Assembly: GCF_020360975.1 (NCBI RefSeq)
Contig: NW_025408671.1
Span: 1,426,001-1,490,000 of the forward strand
Origin: Hirsutella rhossiliensis
Lineage: Eukaryota; Ascomycota; Sordariomycetes; Hypocreales; Ophiocordycipitaceae
Direction: 5' to 3'
DNA length: 64,000 nucleotides
This document shows, piece after piece, positions 13,889-30,657 of the stretch. Numbering within the stretch: position 1 is the first letter of the stretch; every line of letters begins with the position of its first letter. The translations under genes and the position numbers were made by a program. The notes under the pieces were generated by a model, which saw only the letters and a list, made by a program, of their open reading frames with translations, was not told where the DNA came from and searched no databases.

Positions 13889-14051
13889 AAGCCTTGCCAC
13901 TGGGGTTTTCGATGCTGTCCTATGAATCGAGGAATTCGACAAAGAGAAGATTACGGTTGTGCTCAAGAATACTTGAATGGATTGGAGGAGATCTGAATCC
14001 GTGGTTGTGTCTAGACTTAAAAATACCTATAGGTATTTGCTTATAGGCTAC

Positions 14052-14341
14052 TGTTGAGGAGAGAGAATGGGCATAAGAGGCCACAATCATGCTCAGTGGA
14101 CCCAATAGTCATGCACAAGGAAGCCTGCCTAAATAACATGACTCCCCTAGCCCAAAGACACTATGCAGGCCTAACTTAGGTATAGGAATATCCTATTGCC
14201 CTCTTTTAGCTAGCTATATGTGGTCACTGTACCTATATAAGCCCCTCCCTTGTCCCAATAGATAGACCAAGATATGCATCACTAAATTCACCTTTCTATG
14301 CCCCTATTTCTTCCACTATGCTCTCAAGCCACTACTTGAGA
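14052..14341 (+). repeat. 5' LTR of the copia element (little RIP)
   Basis: Starts TGTTGAGG and ends ACTTGAGA, so the 3' end is not the usual CA; the last base is uncertain by one because G is shared by the duplication and the primer site. Unlike the 3' copy it still has many CpA and TpG steps. Aligned by hand without gaps to 20216-20505, it shows about 28 differences, all but one being C to T or G to A in the 3' copy. Confidence 0.9.
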
Positions 14342-14352
14342 GTTATGAGCCC
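14342..14352 (+). other. Primer binding site matching the anticodon loop of initiator tRNA-Met
   Basis: GTTATGAGCCC directly follows the 5' LTR. It is the complement of GGGCUCAUAAC, the anticodon arm of eukaryotic initiator tRNA-Met, not of a tRNA 3' end. Priming from an internally cut tRNA half is known for Drosophila copia and yeast Ty5, so the same mechanism is likely here. Confidence 0.7.
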
Positions 14353-15599
14353 GGCCTGCACGGCTAGACCATCTTTTGCCCGCCGATATCACCTTTAAAG
14401 CTATTTACGAGCTATCAACGCCGTTATAACGCTCAAATTGTGGTATTAAGGCAAGGAACCTAGCCACACTAAGGGGCACTACCAGAAACACACGAATTGC
14501 ACGAATTACGCATCCCTTAAAGAAGGATATTACTTATTAAGCCAGAACCCCTTATTTTCCTAAGATAACGTTAAAGGAAGTAAGAGGGGATAATTATATC
14601 GTGAGACTAAAGGAAAGCCTCGATTGGACCCCATAGATTAGGGGGATCAAATCGTGGGCCTAGACTCACGAGATTTAGGAATATGCTAACCTAGACGGCA
14701 TAAAAGAGCTTAAATAGCCCTAATGGCCGGACTAGGAGCAATTTATTGTCAACCTTAGAGGGAGACCATCCTAACGAGAAGATAAAACCGAGGCTGCGTT
14801 CCTAGCGAGGCGAATAGGCTATAACGAACGATACTAGGATATAAAGGACTCCTTTCGCAACCTCGAGAAAAGGTTCTAGCTATAATTCGATCGCTATAAG
14901 GTCTAGTAGAAAGCCCTAATCGCACTCGAAGAATTAATCAAGAAAACGATCAGTAAAGGGCTTTAAGGGATAACCCTAATGCATAATAGCCTAAGAGAGA
15001 AAATCAAGGAATTAAAGAAGCAAGCCCTGCCTTTAGGGGCAGAGGAGAAAAAGCTGATTTACGAGAGATACACGACCTCTATTAACAAAAGAGGCACGCA
15101 AGACTAGAGAGCATAGGCAGAATAGCTCGACCAAATTATCATAGATTTACGAGACCTTAAGGTCGACACACTTAACGATATAAGAATTAGATAGGACTTT
15201 CTTATAGCGGCAGACGAGTGGGACCTATATTAGTCTATAACAATAAGGGCTCTCGACCTCTATAACGAAAGACACGGCAAAAATCAACTTCCCCTAAGGA
15301 ACCTAATCGCTAACTTTAAATAAGAATATACCTATAGGAAGAAGTCGCAACTACCCGTAAAAAGGGGAAGCGCTAATTAAATCTCTAGGAAATCAGACAC
15401 CTAAGCTAAATGCGCTAGCTATAAGCAGCACGTTAATAGCTCAACAAGCTAGTAGGAAAATTGCTACTTACTACGGGTAATATATAATAAGAAGCCCCCG
15501 ATAGGCTAGAAATACAGTGATCTAGCTAAATAGAATATCGAAAAACGGCTAAAGGACCATCTAGACGAGAAAGTAAAATGCATAGCCTAGACCCCTAAT

Positions 15600-18500
15600 T
15601 CCCACCCTAAAGGAAGAGAACCAGCAGACACTATTATTAGCAATAACGGGCTAGGAAAGACTATTAATACGGTTACTCTATCTAGGGTAAACACGGCTAT
15701 TAAGGGAACGTCGTTACTTACCGATAAATTAATATACGACTTAGGGGCCGATATTAACCTCTTTAATAACCTAGGTTAGTTCTAGGAAGGAACCTTTAAG
15801 TAGGGTTCTAACAACGAAGTCTAGGTTAGAGACTAAGCCTTTAGGGTATAAGGAATAGGAACAGCAGTTATCCCTATAATTAACGGTGGAAAGATAACCC
15901 TGCTAGATGCCTACTTTATCCTAGAAATGCCGATAAGTGTCTTCTTAGCTAGGCTAGGGATGACGGCAGGGATATTCTAGAACCAGCTCCTAGGATACCT
16001 CTATTCGGAACCTACGAAGGAGGTTCGTATTAAACTAACCGACTTCGAAGGTCAATTCGTAATAGGAACACTCCCGCAGTATAAGCGGGTATTCGCAGTT
16101 ATATAAGCGCCTAAGCCGCTAACTAGGGGGGTGGGTGACCTATAGCATCGCCGCCTTAGGCATCCTAGTCTAAAATCACTAGAGAAGCTATTAGAAGCCT
16201 GCCTAGGCACCAAGCTTTAAGGCCCTACAACATACAGCTATCAGATATACGCAACAGGGAAAGCTAAGAGGGAAGTCTCGAGAAAAACACCATCCCTAAG
16301 GCCTAAAGGTCTAGGGGTGCAAGTTAGCTTCGACCTTCACCCTAGCCCTATAATAGCATATAACGGGGAAAAGAACTTCGCCCTATTTACCTATATAGAC
16401 ATATCTATAAGGTTCTATTACCTAATAGAAAGAAAAACGGGTATTAGGGATATCTTTAATAACTTCGTAGCGTTACTTAAGACCTAGTACGGAGTTAAAA
16501 TAACTATATTAGTCACTAACGGGGAAAGGGCTCTTTTAACAATAGAACAAATAGATCATATAACTAATAGAGGGATACGAGTCATACAATCAGCCCCTTC
16601 AACGCCTACGCAAAACGGTCACGTAGAGAGATTAAGGGCAATAGTAAAGGAAAAAGCAAGGGTTATAAGGCTTAACTTAAAGCTTCTAGAAGAGCTATAG
16701 CTAGAGATATACCGTATAGCGGTATACCTGCTTAATATAACACCCTTCGAATTATATAATCATAGCTAGCAGAGCCCATACGAGCGTTAGTAGACCTAGA
16801 TAAAAGAAAATAATCTACTATATTACTATATTAAAGATATTAAACTAGACATTATACATTTAAGGGTCTTTAGCTATATAGCGTTCCTAATAATAATTAC
16901 GGCATTAGAACACATTAAGTTATATAAGACGCAATTACCCCTTAAGCAGAGAGCTTATATCGGCTACCTAGTGGGCTATAGGTCTACTTAATAATACGTC
17001 GTATAGATACCGTTAATTAGATAGAACAAACTAATAGTATTAGCTAATATATAGTTTAACGAGTCTATAAGCTACGATATAAAAAGAGAAGAGCAAGCCT
17101 AGCTAGTCTAAATATACAGCTACGATATCCTTAGAGATATAGCCGCAACCGACGTTATAGACAGCGGGGAACCCAAAACCTTTAGGGTACTAAGTTTATC
17201 CGACGATAATACGGATAACGGTTAGACGCCGGAAGAAGCAATTACCCTCCTACGGGACCTATTGCCCCTACATACTCCGGAAGATCAGGGATTAAAAACG
17301 CCCTTACAGGGATCACATAGATATATATATCTTTCCCCTCCGGAAATAGTAGGCCTAGGGATAGAGATTTCAACGTCACCCCTTCTACCTAATACTATAT
17401 TTAACACGGAGTTACTAAGCTCTATGCCTCCTACGCCCGCAATAGATACTATAGCCAGCAACCCCTCCTATATCTCGTTAGGGAGACAGCTTAAAGATAC
17501 GATACCTATATTAATCGACTCGTCTCCTTAAGACAAACGCAATAATATACCTCTTAACCTAGGGGGTGAAGGAACGATTGTAGTACGGGTTTAAGAAGAT
17601 GACCCCTAGTCCGAACCCCGCACCCTTAACCTAGCGGTTAGTAGGGCCGGCTCAAGGACATCACAAATATAAGAACAACGTAGACGAAAGGATACGTTAT
17701 AAGGGATTAACCTAAGCAACGTTATTAAAGGAAAACGGGCTCGTAGGCCTAAGAAATCCCTTATTAATAATATTATCGCAAAGGCAAGCAAATATAAGCT
17801 TTACGTTGAAGATATGCCGCCCCCCCCTACCTCCTTTAACGCGGCAATGGCTTTAGAATTCGTATACGAGTGGAAGGAAGCTATAGACCGCGAAATGGAG
17901 GAAAACCTAGCAAGGGGCACATAGAAGACTATCCTAAAAGCTATTATCAAATAGAAAGGTCACTTCCTAATCCCCTTACGTTAGGTCTTTGCATATAAGA
18001 CCGATAAATAGGGGTATATTACACGCTTTAAAGCACGTATTGTGGTTCGTAGAGACCTATAACCCGAAGGTAACGAGGATATATATGCAGCTACCCTACG
18101 AGCACGAACATTTCGACTACTAATAGCCTTCTGCTGCCTCGAGGACTTCGAGACGGAACAATACGACGTAAAAACAGCATTTCTATACGCAATCCTACGC
18201 TAAGAAGTCTATTTCTAGCCTCCACCGGGATTCTCAATGCCTAGGCTATGCCTAAAGCTATTAAAAGCACTATACGGGCTCCGTATCTCTCTAAAGCTAT
18301 AGTTTAAAGAGATATCTAGTTTCTTTACTAAACTAGGAGCCTAGCAGCTAGTAGAAGACGCCTGCGTACTAGTCTATAAGGGCGTTATTATCTTTATCTT
18401 CGTAGATAACATCGTTATAATATATCCGAAAAGGCAAAAATAAGATTAGGAAGAGCTATATAAGGCTATCACGAAGAAATACACCGTTACGTATATAGGA

Positions 18501-19390
18501 GAGCTACGCTAGTTCCTTAGCATCGAGATTATTAGGGATAGGGATCTTAAGAAGATATAGCTCTCGCAAGCTTCCTATATCTCTAAGACCGCGAAGAAAT
18601 ATTATATCCTTAATAATAATATCCTTCGTAAGCCTAAGATCCCGCTAATAATAGAAGAGCTCGTCCCCTATAAAAAGCAGGCCTTAAAGGAAGAGATACA
18701 CGAATATCTCTCTCTAATTAAGTTGCTTATTTATCTAGCAATTCATACTAGGCTAGATATCGCATTTATAGCCGGAAAGCTAGCCTAATACAATTATAAC
18801 CCCGGGCCGCGCTATAGGCACGAAGCACGTAAGTGCCTAGCTTACCTCTATTATACGAGAAACCGCTATATCTACTTTACGGCGACAAACCTAATAAGGC
18901 GGCTAATATATATATCCGACTCCTTATACGCCGATAACCTAGAGACTAGGAAGTCCTTATAAGGATACGTATTCCTACTCCTTAGTAGGCTAATTAACTA
19001 GAAAGCTACTAAGCAAGCTACTATAATAACGTCCTCTATAGAAGCTAAATTATTAGCACTCTTATAGACAGCTAAGGAATAGGTAGCATTTGGCCGACTA
19101 ATTAAGGAGCTTAGCATTAGTGTTAAAGGGACTATAGAGCTCTAGTATAATAACCTTTAGACTATTAGGCTTTTAACTAAATTAAGCGCGAAGCTTAAGA
19201 CGAACCTTAAGCACGTTAACGTTTATAGACACTAGCTTCGTTAGGAGGTGCAGTAAGATCGGATATAAGTTAGCTAGATCGCATTAGCAGATAACCTAGC
19301 TAATAGCATAACGAAGGCGCTTATATACTAGAAGCATTAGAGCTTTATTAAGCAACTAGGACTAGTAACACGGCCGGAAGATATATTAAG
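15600..19390 (+). pseudogene. Decayed copia polyprotein (protease-integrase-RT-RNase H)
   Basis: Reading TAG/TAA as former Gln or Trp codons, the plus strand shows a protease core like DLGAD near 15735; the integrase zinc region HRRLRHPS near 16140 and core motifs ending QNGHVERL near 16610; then reverse transcriptase with ARIVVRRDL near 18030, the DVKTAFL box near 18165, ALYGLR near 18270 and a FVDNIV box near 18400 where copia has VDD (Asp to Asn is a G to A change); and RNase H with SSIEAKLLAL near 19035. Integrase before RT defines Ty1/copia. An upstream gag-like part (14.4-15.6 kb) is too eroded to define. The copy cannot encode protein. Confidence 0.85.
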
Positions 19391-20215
19391 AGATAATATA
19401 CCTAACCACCGTATTAAGGCGTGATGTCTCCTTACTATAGCGAACTCGATAATCGCCGGATCCCGATAATAAGAGCACCACTATATGCACTAAGATTAGG
19501 GGATTCTAACGGCGTAGTTAGATCTTAATTTAGTTAAGAAACCATAAAGATCTAGGGGGTAGAAGTTAGCCCTATTTACTACTAAGAAGTAAAGCTATTA
19601 CTAGACTACCCCTTAATTAGCACAATACTAGGGCGCTTAAACTCACGATAATCGCGATAGCTTTACTAAATTAAGACTAATTAATATAAGGAATATATTA
19701 TTAGAAAGCCTACCTTTAGGATTACTTTTATCCTAAATAATAACGTCGCCGGCAAAGGTACTACGGTACCTAGGCCACCTAAAGGGATGCCCCGCTATGC
19801 CCCCTCCTTATAAGGAAGGTTATAAATATAACTTATAACTACTAGTTAAACGGTAAGAGTAGGTTATATAACCCTATTAATCGTAAGTTCGACTCCCCCT
19901 AGGGCGGAAGAGCAGGTTATATGACTACGCCCTAGGGGGGGCGCGGTCAACGAACTTAGGGGCCCGAGGAGATAGGATATACGGAGGAGGGTTCTCCTTA
20001 TATCCTATCCCCTCGGGTCCCGGCTTTTGCCTTTTGCTGCATTTACCTTCCCTTTTTTGCAGGATATAATTAGGAGCCTCCCCTATTTTTAGACAACCTC
20101 CTTAAACAGACAATAAAGCAGCCGAATTTAACATCGGAATAACCTTATATTTATTAGACCGAACCCTCCTCTACCTATTGCCCTACTATCTAGAAGCTAG
20201 TGTGATAAGGGGGTA

Positions 20216-20505
20216 TATTAAGGAGAGAGAATAGGCATAAGAGGCTATAATTATACTTAGTAGACCTATTAGTTATATATAAGGAAGCCTGCCTAAATAA
20301 TATAACTCCCCTAGCCTAAAGACACTATATAGGCCTAACTTAGGTATAGGAATATCCTATTGCCCTCTTTTAGCTAGCTATATATAGTCACTATACCTAT
20401 ATAAGCCCCTCCCTTATCCTAATAGATAGACCAAGATATGCATTACTAAATTCACCTTTCTATGCCCCTATTTCTTCTACTATGCTCTCAAGCCACTACT
20501 TAAGA
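20216..20505 (+). repeat. 3' LTR of the copia element (heavily RIP-mutated)
   Basis: Same length as the 5' LTR with no gaps. It starts TATTAAGG where the 5' copy has TGTTGAGG. Nearly every CpA/TpG of the 5' copy is TpA here. It is followed by the target duplication GCTAC. Confidence 0.9.
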
Positions 20506-23500
20506 GCTACCTATACCTACCCACGGGCTATTTTAGGGCCACTATAAATACTTAGTAGGTAGGTAAATTTAAAATAGGTACCTAAAAATATATATAGGTA
20601 TATTCGGGCTACTTATAGGCATTACCTATTTAGTTTTATTATATTAATCGTTTATACTTATCTTAATACGAGGCACCTATAAAATATATATAGGCTATAT
20701 AGCTAAAAGTAGTATTAAATTAAAGGATAAGATCCTATAGATATTATTTATTCTCTACCTTAACTATCCTTTTAATATTTAAAGTCCTATCGTCGCGGTC
20801 GAATATTCTCCCTATATCTAGTTCTCTTTATAGAGGAGGCGACTATTGCCTTTATTACTATACGGCCTTTTTGCTTTTTCTTATAGCTTTAAACTTATTC
20901 TTCCCGATAAGAGTTACTTTCTTCTATCTCCTCTACTTCCCCTATCTCCTCTACTTCCTCTATCTCCTTTACTTCCTTTAACTCGTTATTACTTAGTAAA
21001 GTAATATTAATTATATCGCGATACTTATCTCTCCCTTACCGGCTTTACGTTTATATTTAAAGAGAGTCTATAAAAAGCTTTTATTAGATAATACTTATAG
21101 GCTATAAGTAAGTATAAAATCTCTTACTTTAATCTTAATCTTCTTTATATAGTATTATAGCCTCTTTATTAAAACGAATTCTATTAAAAGGATTCCTATT
21201 TCTAGGAGTATAAGATATCTTTAAAGCTATATTAAGCTTATATAGCTAATCTTTATACTCCTTTATAGGGTTAATATTATTATTAATCTTTATATCTTAA
21301 AGAAGGATACTATCCTATACGTTAAATCGAGACTATAAGATCGATAGCGTAAATCTCGCCTCTAAGTTTAAGAGTTTTATCCTAGATCGTTAGTATATAT
21401 TAATCTACTAATAAATACTCTAAGCGCGCTTAAGCGGCACGTTACTTAGTTATATTACTAGAAATTCTTATACTATAATATAAATATTCTTATACCTTTT
21501 ATACTAAAATATATAGCGCTAAAAGCTATATATATCCTTAGATAGTAACCTCCTTAGCTAAGATTAATATATTACTTATATATTAATATAAATAAATAAA
21601 AACTTACTTTCTTTAAAAAAAAGCCCTATAGACCGAAATACCTTTATTACCTTATAAAGTCCCTTAATATATAATTAGTATAAATAATTACTATAAATTA
21701 TTATACTATTTACTTTTATTAAACTAAGAAACTAAGTAAGCTAGTCCTTATAAGAGTTAAGAGTAATATTAATATTAAAGGATTATACTAATAACTATAA
21801 GAATCGTTATTAGTAATAGGAAATAAATATATCTTTATAAGTCCTCTATATTTACTTAGAACTAAGTAGATTAGCTTTAGTCTCTTTCTTTAGTAAAATA
21901 AGTAATCCTACCTAACGAATATTAAGCTTACTAATACTTAATAGGGGCGTAAGTAGGGTAGTAATTATATATACTTCCTTTTCCTCTTAAAGGTAGTTAA
22001 TATACTTAGTAAGCTTTTTCTCTATATTATTAATTACTATTATTAGTATACTTTATTAGTTATTACTAGTATTATAAATATTTATAATTTTAGTATAGGA
22101 GTAAAAGAGATCCTTATAAATTATCTTTAGCGAGTTCTAAGATTCTAAGAGTATTATATCTTTCCCTTAGCTAACGTTATTTATAAGCTATAAGAATATC
22201 TTCTTAATATTAATTAGGTAGTTAATTTACTCTTAATTCTTAGTAGATAAAGGCGGGCTAAGCTAAGTATTACTAATAAGAAGTATATTAATTGCCTATT
22301 ATAGCTCCTTAGCTCTCTTAAGTATTATAATAGTAGAGTTCTAGCGCGTAATAATATAACCGGGAATACTTAATAGTTATTTATTTAGTTAGACCTCTTA
22401 TTAGATATTAAAGAAAACCTTTATTTACTTCGCGCTTTAATAGAGTATTAATACTAATATATAGATCTAAGAAGGTTAATATAAAGATTAGTATATAAGT
22501 TATAGTATTTTAATTAGTATTAACTTACCTTTATTATTATTCCTAAGATAACGTTGCTTATACTTATAAGTAAGTTACTTAGTATATCTTTATTAGTACT
22601 TACTTCTTCTATATTATAGTTATCTTATAGAGTTCCTATTATATAAGAATAACTCTATATAACTAGTTTCTACTCTACCTTAATCTTAATAAGCTTTTTA
22701 TAATCTAGTATCTTAGATATAAGAAGGTTAAGAATATACGCGATATATTATATATAGTAAATCGTACTTAGTATATTAATCCCTAGATATAAGTTAAGTT
22801 TCCCTTATAAGTCTCTTAAATAAAGATATATACTATTATTAGTAGTAATACTTTTAAATCGATCTAAAATATAACGCCTTTATAAATATTATATAATAGT
22901 ATTATTTTATAATTCTCTAGAATAGCTAGCTAATATATTTATTAGGCTAAGTAAAAGAAGCTATAAGTACTAATTATAATCGATATAGTAACTAATAATT
23001 CTAAGGACTACTTCGATATTTCTAGTTTAAGTCTAGCTATTAATAGTTAGTAAGAGATACTATCTAGAAGGTATATAGTTAATTAATACTTCTTAAAGAT
23101 TATTAGCGATTATCTCTACTAAATTTATTAGTATAGGGGCGGAGGGAATATAGAATTCTTAATAGTAGAAATAAACTAAGTCTTAGAAAGACTTATAGTT
23201 TACTATATTAACGGCTAAGTATATCTACGAAATAAAATTAGTAAGATAATATTAATATTATAGCTTCTATTTTTAGGTGCCTTATAATAAGATTAGTATA
23301 ATAGATTACTATATTTTTATATAATAAATATAAATATACTAGGGTATATTTCTTTTATACTTAAGTAGATTAAAATATATTCTTAGGTTACTATTTTTTA
23401 ATATAAAACTTACCTTGCCTATAGTATATAAAAGCGCTTATACTAAAACCTTTAATATAAGGATAGATTAGTATAGACTAGTAGGATATATAAATTACTT

Positions 23501-26500
23501 AAGGTTCCCTTATCTTATAGTTTACGCCTTCCTTAAAAGGCCGCTATATATCTAAACGATATAAAGTATTAAAGATTAAAAGAGCATTCTTCTTATAAGG
23601 AGATATATCTATATTAATAGTATTAGAGCTTAAGATACTTACTTAAGAGTATATTATCCTAGGAGATTAAATATTATCTAATAAGTTAGCTTTAAATCTC
23701 GTTTTATACTAGCTAGTAAATATCTACTAATTAAGGAAATCTTAATAATCTTAATACTAAAAGTATAGCGGCTTTCTAAGAGATACTAGCCTATAAGTAG
23801 GAATTATATTAGTATTTATAGTACTACCTTCTTTACTTCCTTAATTAAAAGATTAAAAAGGAGATAGTAAGTCTTTATCTCTATTAAATAAAGAATTATA
23901 CTAACTACCTTAAGTTAACGGTAAAAGGGTAAAAGGCGAATCTTAGTCTATATTACTATAAGGTAAGAAGCTTAGAGCTTAGAGTAAGATATTCGACTTC
24001 TAAGCGTTTTATCTTTAAAGAAATAGATTATTAAAGTATAAAATCTATAAAGTATCTACTATAAAGAAGTAGATAAAGATCTATATAAATAGTTATTATA
24101 AGTAAATAGGTACTTTTAATAAAGTAAAGTAAATAATACGTATAAATAATTAGTATAATTAGTATATATAGAGTACTTTATATTATATAGTACTAAGGTA
24201 ATAGGTATATATCTAATAATAAGAGAAAGTAAGAAAAGCTATATACTACTTTAATATAAAGTTATATCCTAGTATATATACTATATATAGAACGTAAAAG
24301 AGTTTTACCGAGCCCCTATATATTGCCTATTAACTAAAATTTCCCGCTATATTATTATAGAAAGTATTCCCTCCTTTCTCTTTATTTCTAAAGGTACGCT
24401 CTTAATATACTATATACCTTACCTTAAGAAAGGTATATCTAAAATAATATAAACTCTTACTATTCGCTAGTAAAAGTAAAGCTTATAGCTAGATAGCTAG
24501 AATTAAGCTTTAATAGCTTCTTTACTAGCTTAGCGATTATATTAGTCCTTAGTAAAAGTAAGACTAAGCGAATAATTAATCGACCGATTTAGCTTATAAG
24601 ATACTAGCGCCCCTTTTATTAAGCTCGCTATATTTATAGAGCTCGCTATCTCTAGGAAGTTCGCCGCCTCTATAACTAACTTTACTACCTTTATAATACT
24701 CGTCTTTGCTTAAGTAAAGCTTTTCTTATCCTCTATAATAAAGCTCGCCGCTTCCTAGACTAAGCCTAGTATAATAAACGTTAATAGTATTCCTTAAGCC
24801 GCCGCTAACGCTAATACGTTAGATACTAACTCCCTTATCCCGGCCGCCCTTAAAACTTCTTCCTCTTTTACTAAGACGATCTTAAGACTCCCGCCCCTTA
24901 AGTTCTTATATATTTAGTCGTCTAGGTAGTTTACGGATGGATAACTCTACCTACCTAGTTTTAATCCTTTCTTAAGATTAATATATTTAGCCTAAAGGGT
25001 AAAAGAGAGGTAGTAAGATAAAAGAACTATTTAGAATATAGCTAGAATTCTATTCCTGCCCTTAAGTATCTACCCCTATTTTAATAGGCGTAATTAATAT
25101 CCTTTTTAATCTCTACTTAAGGGTATATACTTTTAATATTAAGTAATTATTTCTTTAGTAAGATATAGTACGCTTTACTTATATAGAAGTTTATCTATTT
25201 AATCCTTCTTATAAAAGGATATATTACCTAGGAAAAATAAAGGTCTATTAACTTTTATATAAAAAAGGAAATAATTAAAATATATATTTATATATAGGTA
25301 GTAACTATACTATTACTACTTATTATAAAATATTATAGTATTTATAGTAATATTTATACTAATCTAAATAATAGTATATAAATAAAACATACTAAAATTC
25401 TTTACTTTCCTTACTTTTAAGCTAACTCTCTAGGGTAGTAATAGGTTAGGAAAAACGTCTTAAATACCTTCTATAAATTTAAATATCTACCTAGCTAACT
25501 TAAACTAAAAAGCTTTCTATTAATAGTATCTAGAATAACGCTAGGGCTTCTTATTATAAAGGACCTAAAAGAAACTAATAAAGTATATTCTTATACTCCT
25601 TAGTATACCTCTTAAAGTTTAAAAGGATTCTCTTAAAAATAGATTAAGGAAAGTTATTAGTCTCTTACTATAGCTACGCGGGTTTAGGAAGGATTACCTA
25701 GCTCCTTTTCTTCCCCTTACCTTACTTTATATAGCCGTAAATCTTATATACTATTAAGATCTTTAAGGGCCTAGCCGAAATTCGTTATCGAGAAATTACC
25801 TAAAATGCCTAATAATAGATATTAGTCCTAAGCCGCGTACTAAAGAGTCTCCTATTTATCTAGTTAGTTTAATTAATTAGCTTAAATTATTAGAAGCTTA
25901 GTACTTATATAAATAGTTTTCTTATTAACGTAATTCGTCGTAAAGGCCTAGTCTAAAGACTAAAAGCGAACTAATAAAATAGTTTATAATATAAGAAAAT
26001 ATTTAAGCCGTAAAGAGATTTTAGAAATCTAATAAGGAGTTAACCTAAAAATATATAAAGAAGTAAATAAAGTAAGACTTACTCTTCCTACTACTCTTAA
26101 AGAACGCTTTTTACTACTTAAACTACTAAGGTTAAGTATACTTTAAGTACCTATAGCTTAGAAAATATTAACTAGATAGCTATACTAAAGTATCTTTAAA
26201 AGCACCGAAATACTAATACTTCTTAGTTCTATAATAATTAGTATATAAGAGTAATTAAGGTTAAGAAGATTAAAATACCTTTTAGTCTTACTTAAGTACT
26301 TCTTTAATTCCTTAAAAAGGTTACTTATTACTAAACTAAGCGCTAAACTTAAGCGACTTATCGCCTTTATTAAGAAGAAATATAATCTCGTTGATTTATT
26401 AGGCTTTATTCTCTATCTTAGCGTTAATATCCTCTTAGTTAATATCCTCTTAGTTAATATCCTCTTTAGTAAGAGCGTCCTTATTAAGGATTATATCGCC

Positions 26501-26758
26501 CTACGATACTAATAGGTAAAGTATTTCTTTAACTTAGTCTAGATATCGGCTAAGTAGAAAACTAAATTATTTTTAATTAATATAAAGATTAATTTATTTC
26601 CTATAGTTATTACTTAGTACTTACTACTTACTTTTAATTTCGCAAGAGTCTTTAGTAATTATAATAGCTTTTTCTTCTTTACTTATATTTATCTAAGTTA
26701 TAAAGGACTAGACTTTCTTTCTTAATCGTATAATAGCCTAACGTATTATATTCTTAGC

Positions 26759-26935
26759 TATTATAGAGTAGGCAGAGGCGTAGGCTTAGGTATGGTCCGT
26801 TAGAAGAAGGTCAATAATCTATAAGGGGGAAAAGGAAGAGAAGTATAGGCCTAGCTTATATAGGCGCGGAGGCCGCTTATATATAGACTTAGCCTAGACC
26901 CTAGTCTAGGCCTATATAGGGCAAAAGCCCTTATA
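26759..26935 (-). repeat. LTR of the gag-only element (3' LTR in element orientation)
   Basis: Near-identical to 28455-28631 and the same length. It contains an internal imperfect palindrome built on TAGGCCTATATAGG and CTAGTCTAGG. Confidence 0.85.
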
Positions 26936-27459
26936 TTATACCCCTACCCGGCTTTTAAAGAGGCGCGCCTCTAAATAATACCCGATACCGCGCCTAGGGG
27001 GACGGAACCCTCGCGCGGACTACGCACGCCTAGTCGCGGAAAAAACGTTAGCAAACAACGCACAATACCCTCCTAAGCGAGCTTCTCGGATAGACCATAT
27101 TATTAGTAGGGGCCGCGCCCTAGGAGTCAGGCTTTAGCACTTCTAGCTAAGGAGCGGAGGCACGTAGAACGGCGCGCAGCTAGCTTCGGCAAGCTTATAG
27201 CATCCCGCCCCCCTTATATCGGCGCACGGCAGCAGCTCCTAGTGCCGCAACGTAGGGGACGGTACTCCGGTATATAAGGCTCCGCTCCCTCCCGCACGGG
27301 GCTATGCGGGCACTCCCTTTCGCTATAGTTACATTACATTAGCGGCCTTCCCATATCTTAGCCGCCCTTTCGGTCGCTGCGGGCACACGTCCCGTCCGTA
27401 TAGCAGCTACTGCCGCACGCGAGGGGACGCCGACGAAGCCCGCAAAGGCGTTACTAAGA

Positions 27460-28350
27460 TCACTCGTCGCTAGAGTCGCTATCGTCGAACCTAACCTCCT
27501 TTCCGTCCTAGCGCGTGCGCCCCTCTACTACTTAGAGTGCGTTTACCCGCGCCTCCCGGCGCGGGCACTTTAAAAACTAGTGGGATTTGCTGCCGTAGCC
27601 TATATAGCGACCCTCCTATCGCTACCTCTTTCTATCCTCGGTCCTCGAGGCAGAGATAGAGATATCTATAGTATTACTAGCGTTATCCTCTTCTTATACT
27701 ACGGAAGAAGACGAAAAAAGAAACTTATTGCTACTAAGCTCGCGAAGAAGGCGGATAAGATCGGTATACGTATCTAGGGGTGCGGACCTTTCGCTTAGAC
27801 GGGTGCGCTAATCCGAATTTAAGCTCGTAATAAGGCAATTATACTTTGCCGCGTCGGGCTAGCTATATACGTCTGCTCGATAAAGCACCTCTTTAAACCG
27901 TACGAGGTAGGCCGGAATAGCTTTACTCCGCTTCTAACGGAGCGTTATAAGCTCCTAGCCTGCCGACTTAGCTACGTTAGGTTCGCCGTAATTAGTACGG
28001 AGCTTCGCGAGGAGGTCGGCTAGTCTGTTTATACTAATACGCGTAAACGGTAAGAGATACCTTTATAGGCGTAGGGATAGGCTCGCGTAAAGATAGTCGA
28101 ATTAGGCGCGGATATCCCTTATTGCGGCGCTATCGGTGCGGAGCTTCGCTTCTATATAAAGTAGCCACGGCTCGAGCTCTGCGGAGGAGCCGTCGAACTT
28201 ACTAAGGTGCGGCAGTACCGCTCTTAGTCGTGCGGAGCCCTGCTATTATAAGAGGCTCTCGATTGCCCGGGCGAACTAAGTATTACGTTCGCCTTAATTT
28301 TGCGACTATAGGAGTGCGGATATTTCGCGTGCGCATACACCGGCGCGGGC
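27460..28350 (-). pseudogene. Retrotransposon gag-like protein with CCHC zinc knuckle, RIP-damaged
   Basis: On the minus strand, with TAG/TAA read as Gln/Trp, the frame shows a Retrotrans_gag-like order: DGSSAELEPWL, then KLRTDSAA, FDYLYASLS, LLAKLRTNYGEPN and LSERSAPLDTYTDLI. A CX2CX4HX4C zinc knuckle follows near 27590-27550, with its first two Cys turned into Tyr (TGC to TAC, a RIP change) while the His and last Cys remain. The frame ends in an acidic DDSDSSDE tail at a TGA at 27462-27460. The 65-codon plus-strand frame at 27580 is its shadow. Confidence 0.75.
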
Positions 28351-28454
28351 GGTTTAACTAGACTAGGTAATTAAACGTCGGCTTTAAAGGCAGCTAAAAA
28401 TAGCTATTCCGTATATAGGGATACGGAGAGGGTAAAATAAAGGGTAGATTATAC

Positions 28455-28631
28455 TATTATAGAGTAGGCAGAGGCGTAGGCTTAGGTATAGTCCGTTAGA
28501 AGAAGGTCAATAATCTACGAGGGGGAAAAGGAAGAGAAGTATAGGCCTAGCCTATATAGGCGCGGAGGCCGCTTATATATAGACTTAGCCTAGACCCTAG
28601 TCTAGGCCTATATAGGGCAAAAGCCCTTATA
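28455..28631 (-). repeat. LTR of the gag-only element (5' LTR in element orientation)
   Basis: 177 bp, almost identical to 26759-26935, followed by the TTAGC duplication at 28632-28636. The few differences between the two copies are transitions. Confidence 0.85.
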
Positions 28632-29260
28632 TTAGCCTTTTTAAAGACTTTCTTATTATCGGTTATCTTAGTAACGCGATCGCGCGCTTTCTTTATATTT
28701 ATATTTATTAATAGGGTATCTTCTACCTTTTGTTTTTTTAAAGGCATACTAAGCGGACGGCCTATTATAGATTAGTATAAAGATTAGTATAAAGTAAAGA
28801 GGAGTGTTTAGGAACTCTTACTACGTCGCCGTCGCTCTTAATTATCTATAAAGAAGAGAGCTAAGAAATACGAAAATCTCTAAAATTATTAGCTAGAATA
28901 TTATATAAAATAGAGAGAGATATTACTTACCGTTTAATATATAGTATTAATATAGGTATTAAAAGTAAAATAAAAATTCCTAACGCTAAATAAAGACTAA
29001 ATCTTTACCCTATATAGACCTACTTTTTACTAGAAATTAATTAAGTCGGTAGATCTTCGTAACTAAATAACTATATTTTAATTAGCTAAGAAGCTTATTA
29101 CTACTAGCTTATATTATCGTAACCTTTCTTTTTTTTCTCCTTTCTTAATAAATATATACTCGCCTACGACCGCTAAGCTTTTAAGGTTAATACGCTATCT
29201 ATATATAAATAGCCTTATATTAATATACTAATTATTTATAGTAATCTCGCTTTTAGTCTT

Positions 29261-29834
29261 ATAGTACGTAGCCGGTTTTTTAGCCGGCTAACTAGCGGAA
29301 AGACTCTCCCTAGCTAGAATATAAATACTAGCGGAAAAACTAATAGTAAAGGTAAGGGGAAATTAGTTAAGCTAGTAAGTATTATTAAGCATAAACGAAG
29401 ATTTAAGCTAGGTAGTAAGTCTTTATTTATCTTTTCTTACTTAAACGTAATAAGACTTAAGTATATTTCTTTCTTAGATTATCTACTAATTTTAATATTA
29501 GCTATTACTTTACGCGAAATTCGAAAATTCTAGTAAATTCCTAATTTACTTATCCCTCGCGCTTCGTTTACCCGCTTTATTTAAGAGGTTATATAAGATA
29601 TTACTCCTAGCCTTCGTATCTAGAAGGCAGTATTAGCAGCTATCTAGGAGTCGGCAAAGAGTATACTAGCTACTATATTCTAAGGTAAGTTAATATAATT
29701 ATTATACTAATTATTATACTAACTAGCGACTATAAATAGTAATAGGATAGCTAGTTATCGCGGCTAAAAGAGTTATAATTTAGTAAAAAGATATTACTAC
29801 TCTTAAAGATATTATTAGTATCCTTAAGAAATAA
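29261..29834 (+). pseudogene. Decayed histone H3-like gene carried by the outer transposon
   Basis: Three exons are implied: about 29261-29414, 29502-29684 and 29740-29834. Introns start GTAAGT at 29415 and 29685 and end in TTAG and ATAG. Exon 1 is a Lys/Ser/Thr-rich tail ending KRRFKLGT, as in the H3 tail-core junction. Exon 2 aligns without a gap to 58 residues of the H3 core: TLREIRKF, LLIPRASF, the loop-1 region DITPSLRI and ESAKSILATIF. Six in-frame stops occur, and four lie exactly at conserved H3 glutamines (Q55, Q76, Q85, Q93), as CAA/CAG to TAA/TAG RIP would make. Exon 3 gives AKRV-I-I then KDI, the H3 C-terminal helix signature. Loop 1 has canonical H3 length, not the longer CENP-A type. 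The gene is dead. Confidence 0.72.
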
Positions 29835-29959
29835 GACTAGTCTTTCTTAGTCTAAAATAAAGCTAGTATATATACCTTATTAGAAGTTATTATATTAATC
29901 GTTTATACTAACTTTTTTCCTTTAGTATATAGTTCTACCTCCTAGCATAATTTTTCTAA

Positions 29960-30490
29960 TCTATTAAGAGTCGAAAAATAAAAGCTTCTACGAAGCACGC
30001 GACTAGTAAAGATTAAAGAAGTGCGTGCTTATAAAGTTTAGGCTTAAAGAGATAATTTTAATAAAAAGCAGAAGTAGTTAAAGGAGTAACGATAATCGAA
30101 GGTATAGTAAAAGAAGAAAACTATTACTATAGAGATTAATAGTAAGGGGAGCGAAAATAAAGATAATTCCGACTATAAATAGCCCCAAATAATTAAAAAG
30201 ACCTATAAAGTCCCCTTAGATAATAAGGCTAATAAGGATAAAATATTCGAAGAATTACTATAATCGTTAGGTATAAAAGAGCCTATAATAACTATAGATA
30301 GCTTAAGCTTATCCTAGCCATGGGAAGTATAAGGGTAGAAAGTTAGGAGTAAAAGAGGCTAAAAATATCCTAGCTCTAAGTTAGAGATAAAGAGATAATT
30401 AGTATAATTAATTAGTACTAGACTTTTAGTTCTTTAATCTCTATAAATTCGCTTAACTAAAAGTAACTTCGAATAGGAATCTACTAAGTT
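29960..30490 (+). pseudogene. Basic, coiled-coil-like coding trace downstream of the H3-like gene
   Basis: The plus strand reads as a Lys/Gln/Arg-rich chain when TAG/TAA are taken as Gln/Trp (for example KLLRSTRLVKIKEVRAYK followed by alternating K, Q, R), then an acidic Ser/Asp patch. The style recalls the basic C-terminal tails of fungal pogo/Fot transposases, but no catalytic motif was found. It may be a second small gene of the transposon or a 3' exon of something lost. Confidence 0.3.
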
Positions 30491-30657
30491 ATTTTAGGCT
30501 AGTCTAGGTACCTAGCTTTACCTAAAGTATATATTAATAACCTATAGGTAAATATAGTCTTTTGTCTTAAAACCTATTTCTACCTATAGACTAGACTGAA
30601 AAAATTAGGCAGCCCATGGGTAGCCACGGGCGCCCACTTTTAAAGTCTAGTTGTGTC

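What the first reader, a model, noticed from the sequence alone, without database searches (positions are those of the whole stretch)
29261..29834. A histone H3-like gene carried inside a RIP-inactivated transposon
Exon 2 of the plus-strand trace aligns without gaps to 58 residues of the H3 core, with about 22 matches if RIP stops are read as Gln. Four of six in-frame stops fall exactly on glutamines that are nearly invariant in H3 (55, 76, 85, 93). The flanking exons supply a Lys-rich tail ending KRRFKLGT and the AKRV...KDI end, joined across GTAAGT introns. Histone genes are not known cargo of this kind of element as far as I know. A mobile H3 variant could alter chromatin or silencing at its insertion sites, or help the element escape the host. 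Function is inference; similarity is read directly.
Basis: partly seen in the sequence, partly recalled or inferred. Interest (0 to 1): 0.88.

Follow-up and report, generated by a model that had tools for sequence, protein, structure and literature searches.

The report
Histone H3-like gene inside dead transposon
A fungal jumping gene, now wrecked by the fungus's own genome defence, carries its own much-changed copy of histone H3, a protein that packages DNA; such elements are already described from other fungi, but this one has introns in places where the fungus's own H3 gene has none.

Summary
Confirmed. Window 29261-29834 (+) holds a three-exon histone H3-like gene broken by stops of the kind RIP makes. 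Exon 2, stops read as Gln, scores 29.8 bits to Pfam Histone (C23 copy 43.1; cut-off 26.4) and 1.3e-10 to H3.3 in the PDB; 12 of 12 element copies tested beat the best of 300 resampled sequences. Exons 1 and 3 match no Pfam family alone and are assigned by position and short motifs. The gene lies in an 8.3-kb element with TAGACTT ends and an 8-bp duplication (window 14012-30649, split by two nested insertions). All 17 exon-2 matches in element copies contain stops.

The claim that histones are not known cargo is wrong: hAT-borne H3 is published from Pyrenophora tritici-repentis (PMC3538342) and, RIP-killed and intronless, from Mycosphaerellaceae (PMC6710886). Here the gene has two introns, not at the host H3 intron positions; the tail is longer and seems to lack K9. 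Kept frame and codon-position pattern suggest it stayed a coding gene before RIP (modest evidence). The hAT label rests on duplication, ends and literature; no transposase domain passed its cut-off. Effects on chromatin are speculation.

The parts
14012..30649 (.). Whole transposon as it lies in the window, interrupted by two nested insertions (a copy without them elsewhere: 8,296 bp)
   Evidence: Left end TAGACTTAAAAATACC at 14012, right end AAGTCTA at 30649; uninterrupted copy L050:142-8437
14004..14011 (.). Left 8-bp target-site duplication GTTGTGTC
30650..30657 (.). Right 8-bp target-site duplication GTTGTGTC
14012..14051 (+). Left terminal stretch of the element, before the nested LTR retroelement
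   Evidence: 3 of 30 mismatches to the left end of L050; sequence
14052..20505 (.). Nested LTR retroelement, 5-bp duplication GCTAC (14047-14051 and 20506-20510); not part of the transposon
   Evidence: 292-bp direct repeats 14054-14345 / 20218-20509, 90% alike; ends read by eye
20506..26758 (.). Left and central part of the transposon; no protein domain above a curated cut-off found
   Evidence: Matches to other copies; Pfam scans of read-through frames
26759..28632 (.). Nested 1.87-kb insertion with 181-bp terminal direct repeats, 5-bp duplication TTAGC; not part of the transposon
   Evidence: duplication read by eye
28633..30649 (.). Right part of the transposon, holding the H3-like gene
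29261..29414 (+). H3-like gene exon 1: first codon reads ATA; N-terminal tail ending KRRFKLG(T)
29415..29501 (+). Intron 1 (87 nt), GTAAGT..TAG
   Evidence: GTAAGT in 14 of 15, final TAG in 16 of 16 copies without a gap there
29502..29684 (+). H3-like gene exon 2: H3 residues 46-105
29685..29739 (+). Intron 2 (55 nt), GTAAGT..TACTAAC..TAG (3' site chosen because it gives a gapless match to H3)
   Evidence: GTAAGT 16 of 16, TACTAAC 14 of 16 copies
29740..29834 (+). H3-like gene exon 3: C-terminal part with AKRV..KDI and final TAA
   Evidence: assigned by position and motif, no Pfam match on its own
30621..30649 (-). Right terminal inverted repeat region (short, imperfect)

Best explanation
A class II transposon, probably of hAT type (8-bp duplication, short TAGACTT ends), acquired a histone H3 gene long ago. 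The gene diverged as part of the element while it stayed translatable: seen are a frame that matches H3 46-105 without gaps and, with the 3' splice site as chosen, on to the C-terminus; a pair of introns of its own; and fewer second-position transversions. Repeat-induced point mutation then put stops into every copy found, the window copy included. Inferred: that the element is hAT, that its own transposase moved it, and that the H3-like protein once served the element, for example by entering nucleosomes on its DNA. In this genome no copy seen could make the whole protein now.
For: H3 identity. The gene belongs to the element: 9 of 34 own-genome matches (the window's included) span at least 1,787 of the 1,791 bases queried, and the right end AAGTCTA was found in 20 of 21 loci examined, and in the twenty-first, L017. 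TSD: the window copy identical over 8 bp; of 6 copies elsewhere whose flanks I paired by contig order, 3 are identical and 3 differ only by C-T or G-A. RIP: (CpA+TpG)/(ApC+GpT) 0.04 and 0.13 in the two window parts against 1.22 and 1.27 in the flanks; 16258 of 17916 pairwise differences are transitions. Coding constraint, L011 against host H3 over 80 codons: transversions at positions 1, 2, 3 are 28, 13, 27 of 80, and 19 of 45 at host fourfold sites; position 2 against 1 p 0.011, against fourfold p 0.0025 (which mends). Introns do not coincide with host H3 introns, in codon 25 and between codons 70 and 71 (sequence).
Against: No transposase domain above a curated cut-off: best Dimer_Tnp_hAT E 0.01, in 2 of 15 read-through frames, in a stretch that by eye does not look like the motif; blastp, phmmer and copy profiles found no good match to 4 intact hAT proteins of the genome. 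The codon test rests on one ancestral sequence, with exon 2 alone gives only p 0.051, and part of the silent change arose on the host branch. Exons 1 and 3 have no independent statistical support. No intact relative was found to check the reading.
Confidence: 0.8

Rival explanations
1. Passive transduplication: a host H3 gene or transcript was captured by chance, never used, and simply amplified and killed by RIP, as the authors of PMC6710886 propose for Mycosphaerellaceae.
For: All 17 exon-2 matches in element copies contain stops; published precedent; the codon test for use is weak (p 0.051 on exon 2 alone).
Against: About half of the core residues changed (29 of 60 still match in copy L011 with stops as Gln) with the frame kept; second codon positions more conserved than first over 80 codons; introns unlike those of the host gene, which neither a retrocopy nor a recent genomic copy of this host's H3 would have.
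Confidence: 0.27
2. The gene derives from CENP-A (CenH3), not from canonical H3.
For: KRRFKLGT resembles KRRYRPGT of the host gene that I take for CENP-A more than HRYKPGT of host H3.
Against: Alignment score 123 to host H3 against 83 to host CENP-A; no CENP-A-type insertion in loop 1; shares ESVES with host H3, where host CENP-A has EAAEA.
Confidence: 0.05
3. The histone similarity is a chance product of reading AT-rich RIP-damaged DNA with stops as Gln.
For: The first Pfam and PDB tests, in the wrong frame, were negative.
Against: 38.4 bits against a maximum of 9.4 in 300 resamples, and 12 of 12 copies above all of them; the whole-genome PF00125 search found the C23 copy without my choosing a frame.
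Confidence: 0.01

Closest known systems
Histone H3-like (H3L) hAT elements of Pyrenophora tritici-repentis (PMC3538342; passages read)
   Same: Terminal-inverted-repeat element carrying a divergent H3 with insertions in the tail and helices that match neither H3 nor CenH3.
   Different: There a 5.6-kb form (10 copies, with hAT transposase and a central ORF) and a 2.3-kb form (16 copies); of 26 H3L genes only two are frame-shifted, and ESTs exist. Here 8.3 kb, stops in all 17 exon-2 matches, no transposase domain recognised. The passages I read do not say whether the Pyrenophora H3L gene has introns.
RIP-inactivated hAT elements with histone H3 in Pseudocercospora, Cercospora and Sphaerulina (PMC6710886; abstract, background, results and first part of the discussion read)
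   Same: hAT element with 8-bp duplication (P. fijiensis, C. zeae-maydis), H3-like copies all RIP-broken, an intact host H3.
   Different: There 9.5-9.9 kb in P. fijiensis, one or two H3 copies per element, 135-784 H3-like copies per genome, introns absent (transcript or retrocopy inferred), DUF659 found. Here one H3-like gene with two introns, about 16 copies with exon 2, and a host whose ITS looks to me like Hypocreales (recalled, untested).

Membership tests
Core histone H3 (PF00125) | Score above the Pfam gathering cut-off of 26.4 bits | tested here: met
   Exon 2 with stops as Gln: 29.8 bits window copy, 43.1 bits C23 copy; the whole frame of L050 only 17.5 bits
Core histone H3 (PF00125) | H3-type rather than CENP-A-type loop 1 and helix 2 | tested here: met
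Core histone H3 (PF00125) | Conserved N-terminal tail with K4, K9 and other modified lysines | tested here: not met
   Position 4 is R in 8, W in 3 and a stop in 2 of 13 copies; the K9-S10 pair aligns by eye to a single Leu and about 7 residues are added. So H3-like, not canonical H3; the tail alignment is by eye
hAT superfamily | 8-bp target-site duplication | tested here: met
   Window copy exact; 3 of 6 paired copies exact, 3 of 6 with transition differences only
hAT superfamily | Short terminal inverted repeats | tested here: met
   TAGACTT and an imperfect extension
hAT superfamily | hAT transposase domains | tested here: inconclusive
   Best Dimer_Tnp_hAT E 0.01, under the cut-off; the DUF659 search is uninformative because nothing rang in its controls either
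Mycosphaerellaceae-type hAT-H3 capture | Intronless H3 retrocopy | tested here: not met
   Two introns with conserved splice sites; splicing itself not observed
RIP-inactivated repeat | CpA to TpA bias and stops of TAA/TAG type | tested here: met
   Index 0.04 and 0.13 against 1.22 and 1.27 in flanks; only TAA and TAG stops in exon 2 of the 14 rows counted
Same lineage as Pyrenophora H3L | H3-like genes form one clade apart from host H3 | not testable with these tools
   The Pyrenophora and Mycosphaerellaceae sequences were not at hand; no tree was built

The most novel reading that the evidence does not exclude
Divergent H3 is not an accidental passenger but an old working part of a lineage of fungal hAT elements, in at least two classes of Ascomycota if my ITS reading of this host holds. 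The element-coded H3, apparently without K9 and with an altered tail, would have formed nucleosomes on element DNA that cannot carry the H3K9 methyl mark, delaying heterochromatin and silencing; RIP then ended it in this genome.
Probability: 0.15. Interest if true: 0.82.

Novelty: new variant of a known kind. Interest (0 to 1): 0.48.

Why it matters
H3-carrying hAT elements of Mycosphaerellaceae were explained as capture of a host transcript; the Pyrenophora authors asked in print whether captured genes are kept by selection and whether the odd H3 alters chromatin (passages). A further example, with introns of its own and a codon pattern that hints at a gene kept in use, makes it testable whether fungal transposons encode their own histone variant. 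That would bear on how mobile DNA handles chromatin silencing. As a relic with stops in every copy found here, it has no evident present function.

Tried and rejected
Wrong frame first: exon 2 read from 29472 gave no Pfam or PDB match; the right frame, with codons from 29504, was shown by the C23 copy found. Chance similarity was rejected by resampling and CENP-A origin by alignment. A slip of mine (host codon 71 taken from intron bases) was mended: fourfold transversions 19, not 20, of 45; third positions 27, not 28, of 80.

Search for the transposase: six-frame read-through Pfam scans of L050, 15 left-half minus-strand frames from five sources, 24 further frames from four copies and 8 shorter pieces gave only matches under the curated cut-offs apart from the histone. 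Four intact hAT proteins of the genome gave one blastp match at E 0.94, no phmmer match, and no copy-profile match better than E 0.6. Stop density per frame gave no clean gene map. Protein database: no hit among 1 candidate for the H3 piece or among 4638 for the minus-strand ORF; I suspect the collection holds few fungal proteins, untested. Folding exon 2 alone gave mean pLDDT 67 with a short and a long helix, not used; no fold search was made.

Literature: ten searches of an open-licence library gave the two papers on H3 in hAT elements, a 2026 paper that cites one of them (PMC13041039, passages), and others seen only in listings, PMC8616336 among them. In what I searched I saw none describing such an H3 gene with introns or from Hypocreales.

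Full report
What is there. The stretch 29261-29834 (+) is a broken gene of three exons: 29261-29414, 29502-29684 and 29740-29834, 144 codons with the final stop. In the right frame exon 2 of the window copy reads ITLREIRKF**IPNLLIPRASFTRFI*EVI*DITPSLRI*KAVLAAI*ESAKSILATIF* and that of the C23 copy IALREIRKF**IPDLLIPRASFARLIREVI*DITPSLRI*KAVLAAI*ESVESMLATIF*. The host's own H3 over the same part is [60 protein letters not shown]. With stops as Gln the window copy matches it at 24 of 60 and the C23 copy at 29 of 60 residues; with stops left as stops, 20 and 25.

Is it more than chance. With stops read as Gln, Pfam Histone matches exon 2 at 29.8 bits (E 7.8e-7) in the window copy and 43.1 bits (E 6e-11) in the C23 copy, cut-off 26.4. 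The best PDB sequence is H3.3 at 1.3e-10. A search of the whole genome with the Pfam model found the C23 copy unprompted at 26.4 bits, E 4.1e-4, with five stops inside, last of 9 matches, the others lying at histone-like genes. Host H3 against read-through six-frame translations scored 15.1-46.1 bits in 12 of 12 copies examined and at most 9.4 in 300 order-1 resamples of the right window part. Against this, exons 1 and 3 alone match no Pfam family, exon 3 alone scores about 1.4 bits, and the whole read-through frame of L050 scores 17.5 bits. Of 18 aligned rows (window included) 14 were counted for exon 2; L020, L023, L025 and L026 were dropped, and L015 was counted although one inserted base shifts its frame. 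In those 14, stops stand at Q55, K56, Q76 and Q85 in 14, at Q93 in 11, at E105 in 13, at R72 in 8 and at R52 in 1; all are TAA or TAG.

The element. The right end is AAGTCTA at 30649 and the left end TAGACTTAAAAATACC at 14012, with GTTGTGTC on both sides. Between them lie an LTR retroelement (14052-20505) and a 1.87-kb insertion with 181-bp terminal direct repeats (26759-28632). An uninterrupted copy at C1:8426841-8435136 is 8,296 bp with CTATACTT on both sides. For six copies elsewhere I paired both flanks by contig order: three are identical over 8 bp and three differ only by C-T or G-A. The H3-like part has 34 own-genome matches, 9 of them (the window's included) over at least 1,787 of 1,791 bases. 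Exon 2 has 17 matches besides host H3, two of which I take for halves of one split copy; all 17 contain stops. No intact copy was seen.

RIP. The index (CpA+TpG)/(ApC+GpT) is 0.04 and 0.13 in the two parts of the window element against 1.22 and 1.27 in the flanks. Of pairwise differences among the 18 rows, 16258 of 17916 (91%) are transitions.

Introns. Intron 1 (29415-29501) begins GTAAGT in 14 of 15 copies and ends TAG in 16 of 16. Intron 2 (29685-29739) begins GTAAGT in 16 of 16 and holds TACTAAC in 14 of 16 (copies with gaps there left out). The 3' site of intron 2 was chosen because it gives a gapless match to the C-terminus of H3. The host H3 gene has introns in codon 25 and between codons 70 and 71 (sequence); the gene I take for host CENP-A breaks at about the latter place too. 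The element gene has neither; its introns lie in codon 45 and near codon 106. So it is neither a simple retrocopy nor a recent copy of this host's H3 gene. Either introns were gained after capture or the source was another lineage's gene.

Tail. The least damaged copies read IARGRFFSRLTGGK (L011) and IARSRFFSRLTGGK (L026), then a Lys- and Gly-rich part, then KRKRRFKLG or KRKQRFKLG. The first codon is ATA in 13 of 13 copies that cover it, as expected if an ATG was hit by RIP. Position 4 is R in 8, W in 3 and a stop in 2 of 13. By eye the K9-S10 pair aligns to one Leu and about 7 residues are added. This alignment is weaker than that of the core.

H3 or CENP-A. Exon 2 of the C23 copy scores 123 against host H3 and 83 against host CENP-A, has no loop-1 insertion and shares ESVES with host H3.

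Was it a used gene. Transversions, which RIP does not make, from host H3 over 80 codons of L011 are 28, 13 and 27 of 80 at positions 1, 2 and 3, and 19 of 45 at host fourfold sites; a rotated control gives 49%. Position 2 differs from position 1 at p 0.011, from position 3 at p 0.017 and from fourfold sites at p 0.0025; with exon 2 alone, position 2 against 1 gives p 0.051. With the kept frame this suggests a gene kept in use while it diverged. Limits: the copies share one ancestor, the comparison is with one host gene, and part of the silent change belongs to the host branch.

Transposase. No read-through frame gave a transposase domain above cut-off. Dimer_Tnp_hAT appears at E 0.01 at best in 2 of 15 frames and at 0.046 in one of L050, in a stretch that by eye does not resemble the motif. 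The genome has many hAT matches without stops (150 matches scored of 473 candidates), but four such proteins did not match this element. The hAT label therefore rests on duplication, ends and the published relatives.

What is known. Manning and others 2013 (PMC3538342; passages) describe a hAT element in Pyrenophora tritici-repentis with transposase, a central ORF and a histone H3-like gene, 26 copies, with ESTs, tail insertions and helices that match neither H3 nor CenH3; they already ask whether such genes are kept by selection. Dhillon and others 2019 (PMC6710886; abstract, background, results and first part of the discussion) describe RIP-inactivated hAT elements with intronless H3 in six Mycosphaerellaceae genomes. 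The finding is therefore of a known kind. New here, as far as those texts go, are the introns and, if the ITS reading is right, a host outside Dothideomycetes. That reading (Hypocreales) is recalled from ITS1 of L074 and was not tested.

Verdict. The reading worth following is that divergent H3 is a regular gene of some fungal hAT elements rather than a repeated accident; a search for intact relatives would decide.

Noticed in passing
window 14052-20505: LTR retroelement nested in the left end of the H3 transposon; 292-bp terminal repeats 90% alike, 5-bp duplication GCTAC. The stretch 20000-20505 with its right LTR has many matches elsewhere in the genome.
   Followed up: partly
window 26759-28632: 1.87-kb insertion with 181-bp terminal direct repeats (98%), duplication TTAGC, GC 0.51 against 0.26-0.29 in the transposon. 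Relatives also lie in or beside two other copies: L015, and one at C1:5.897-5.899 Mb seen as L032 and L036.
   Followed up: partly
window 25687-26730 (-): Frame with low stop density, 30 matches in the genome that I take for copies of the element, no domain above cut-off; might be a second gene of the element.
   Followed up: partly
window 29850-30450 (+): Lys-rich frame downstream of the H3-like gene, similar in the 4 element rows shown; no domain above cut-off (one other copy).
   Followed up: partly
G000, many places: Many hAT-domain matches without stops in the same genome although this family is heavily RIP-mutated; RIP may be weaker now, or those families may escape it.
   Followed up: no
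L074 1200-1860: ITS1-5.8S-ITS2 on contig C16 (10 matches to 5.8S); ITS1 looks like Hypocreales from memory.
   Followed up: no
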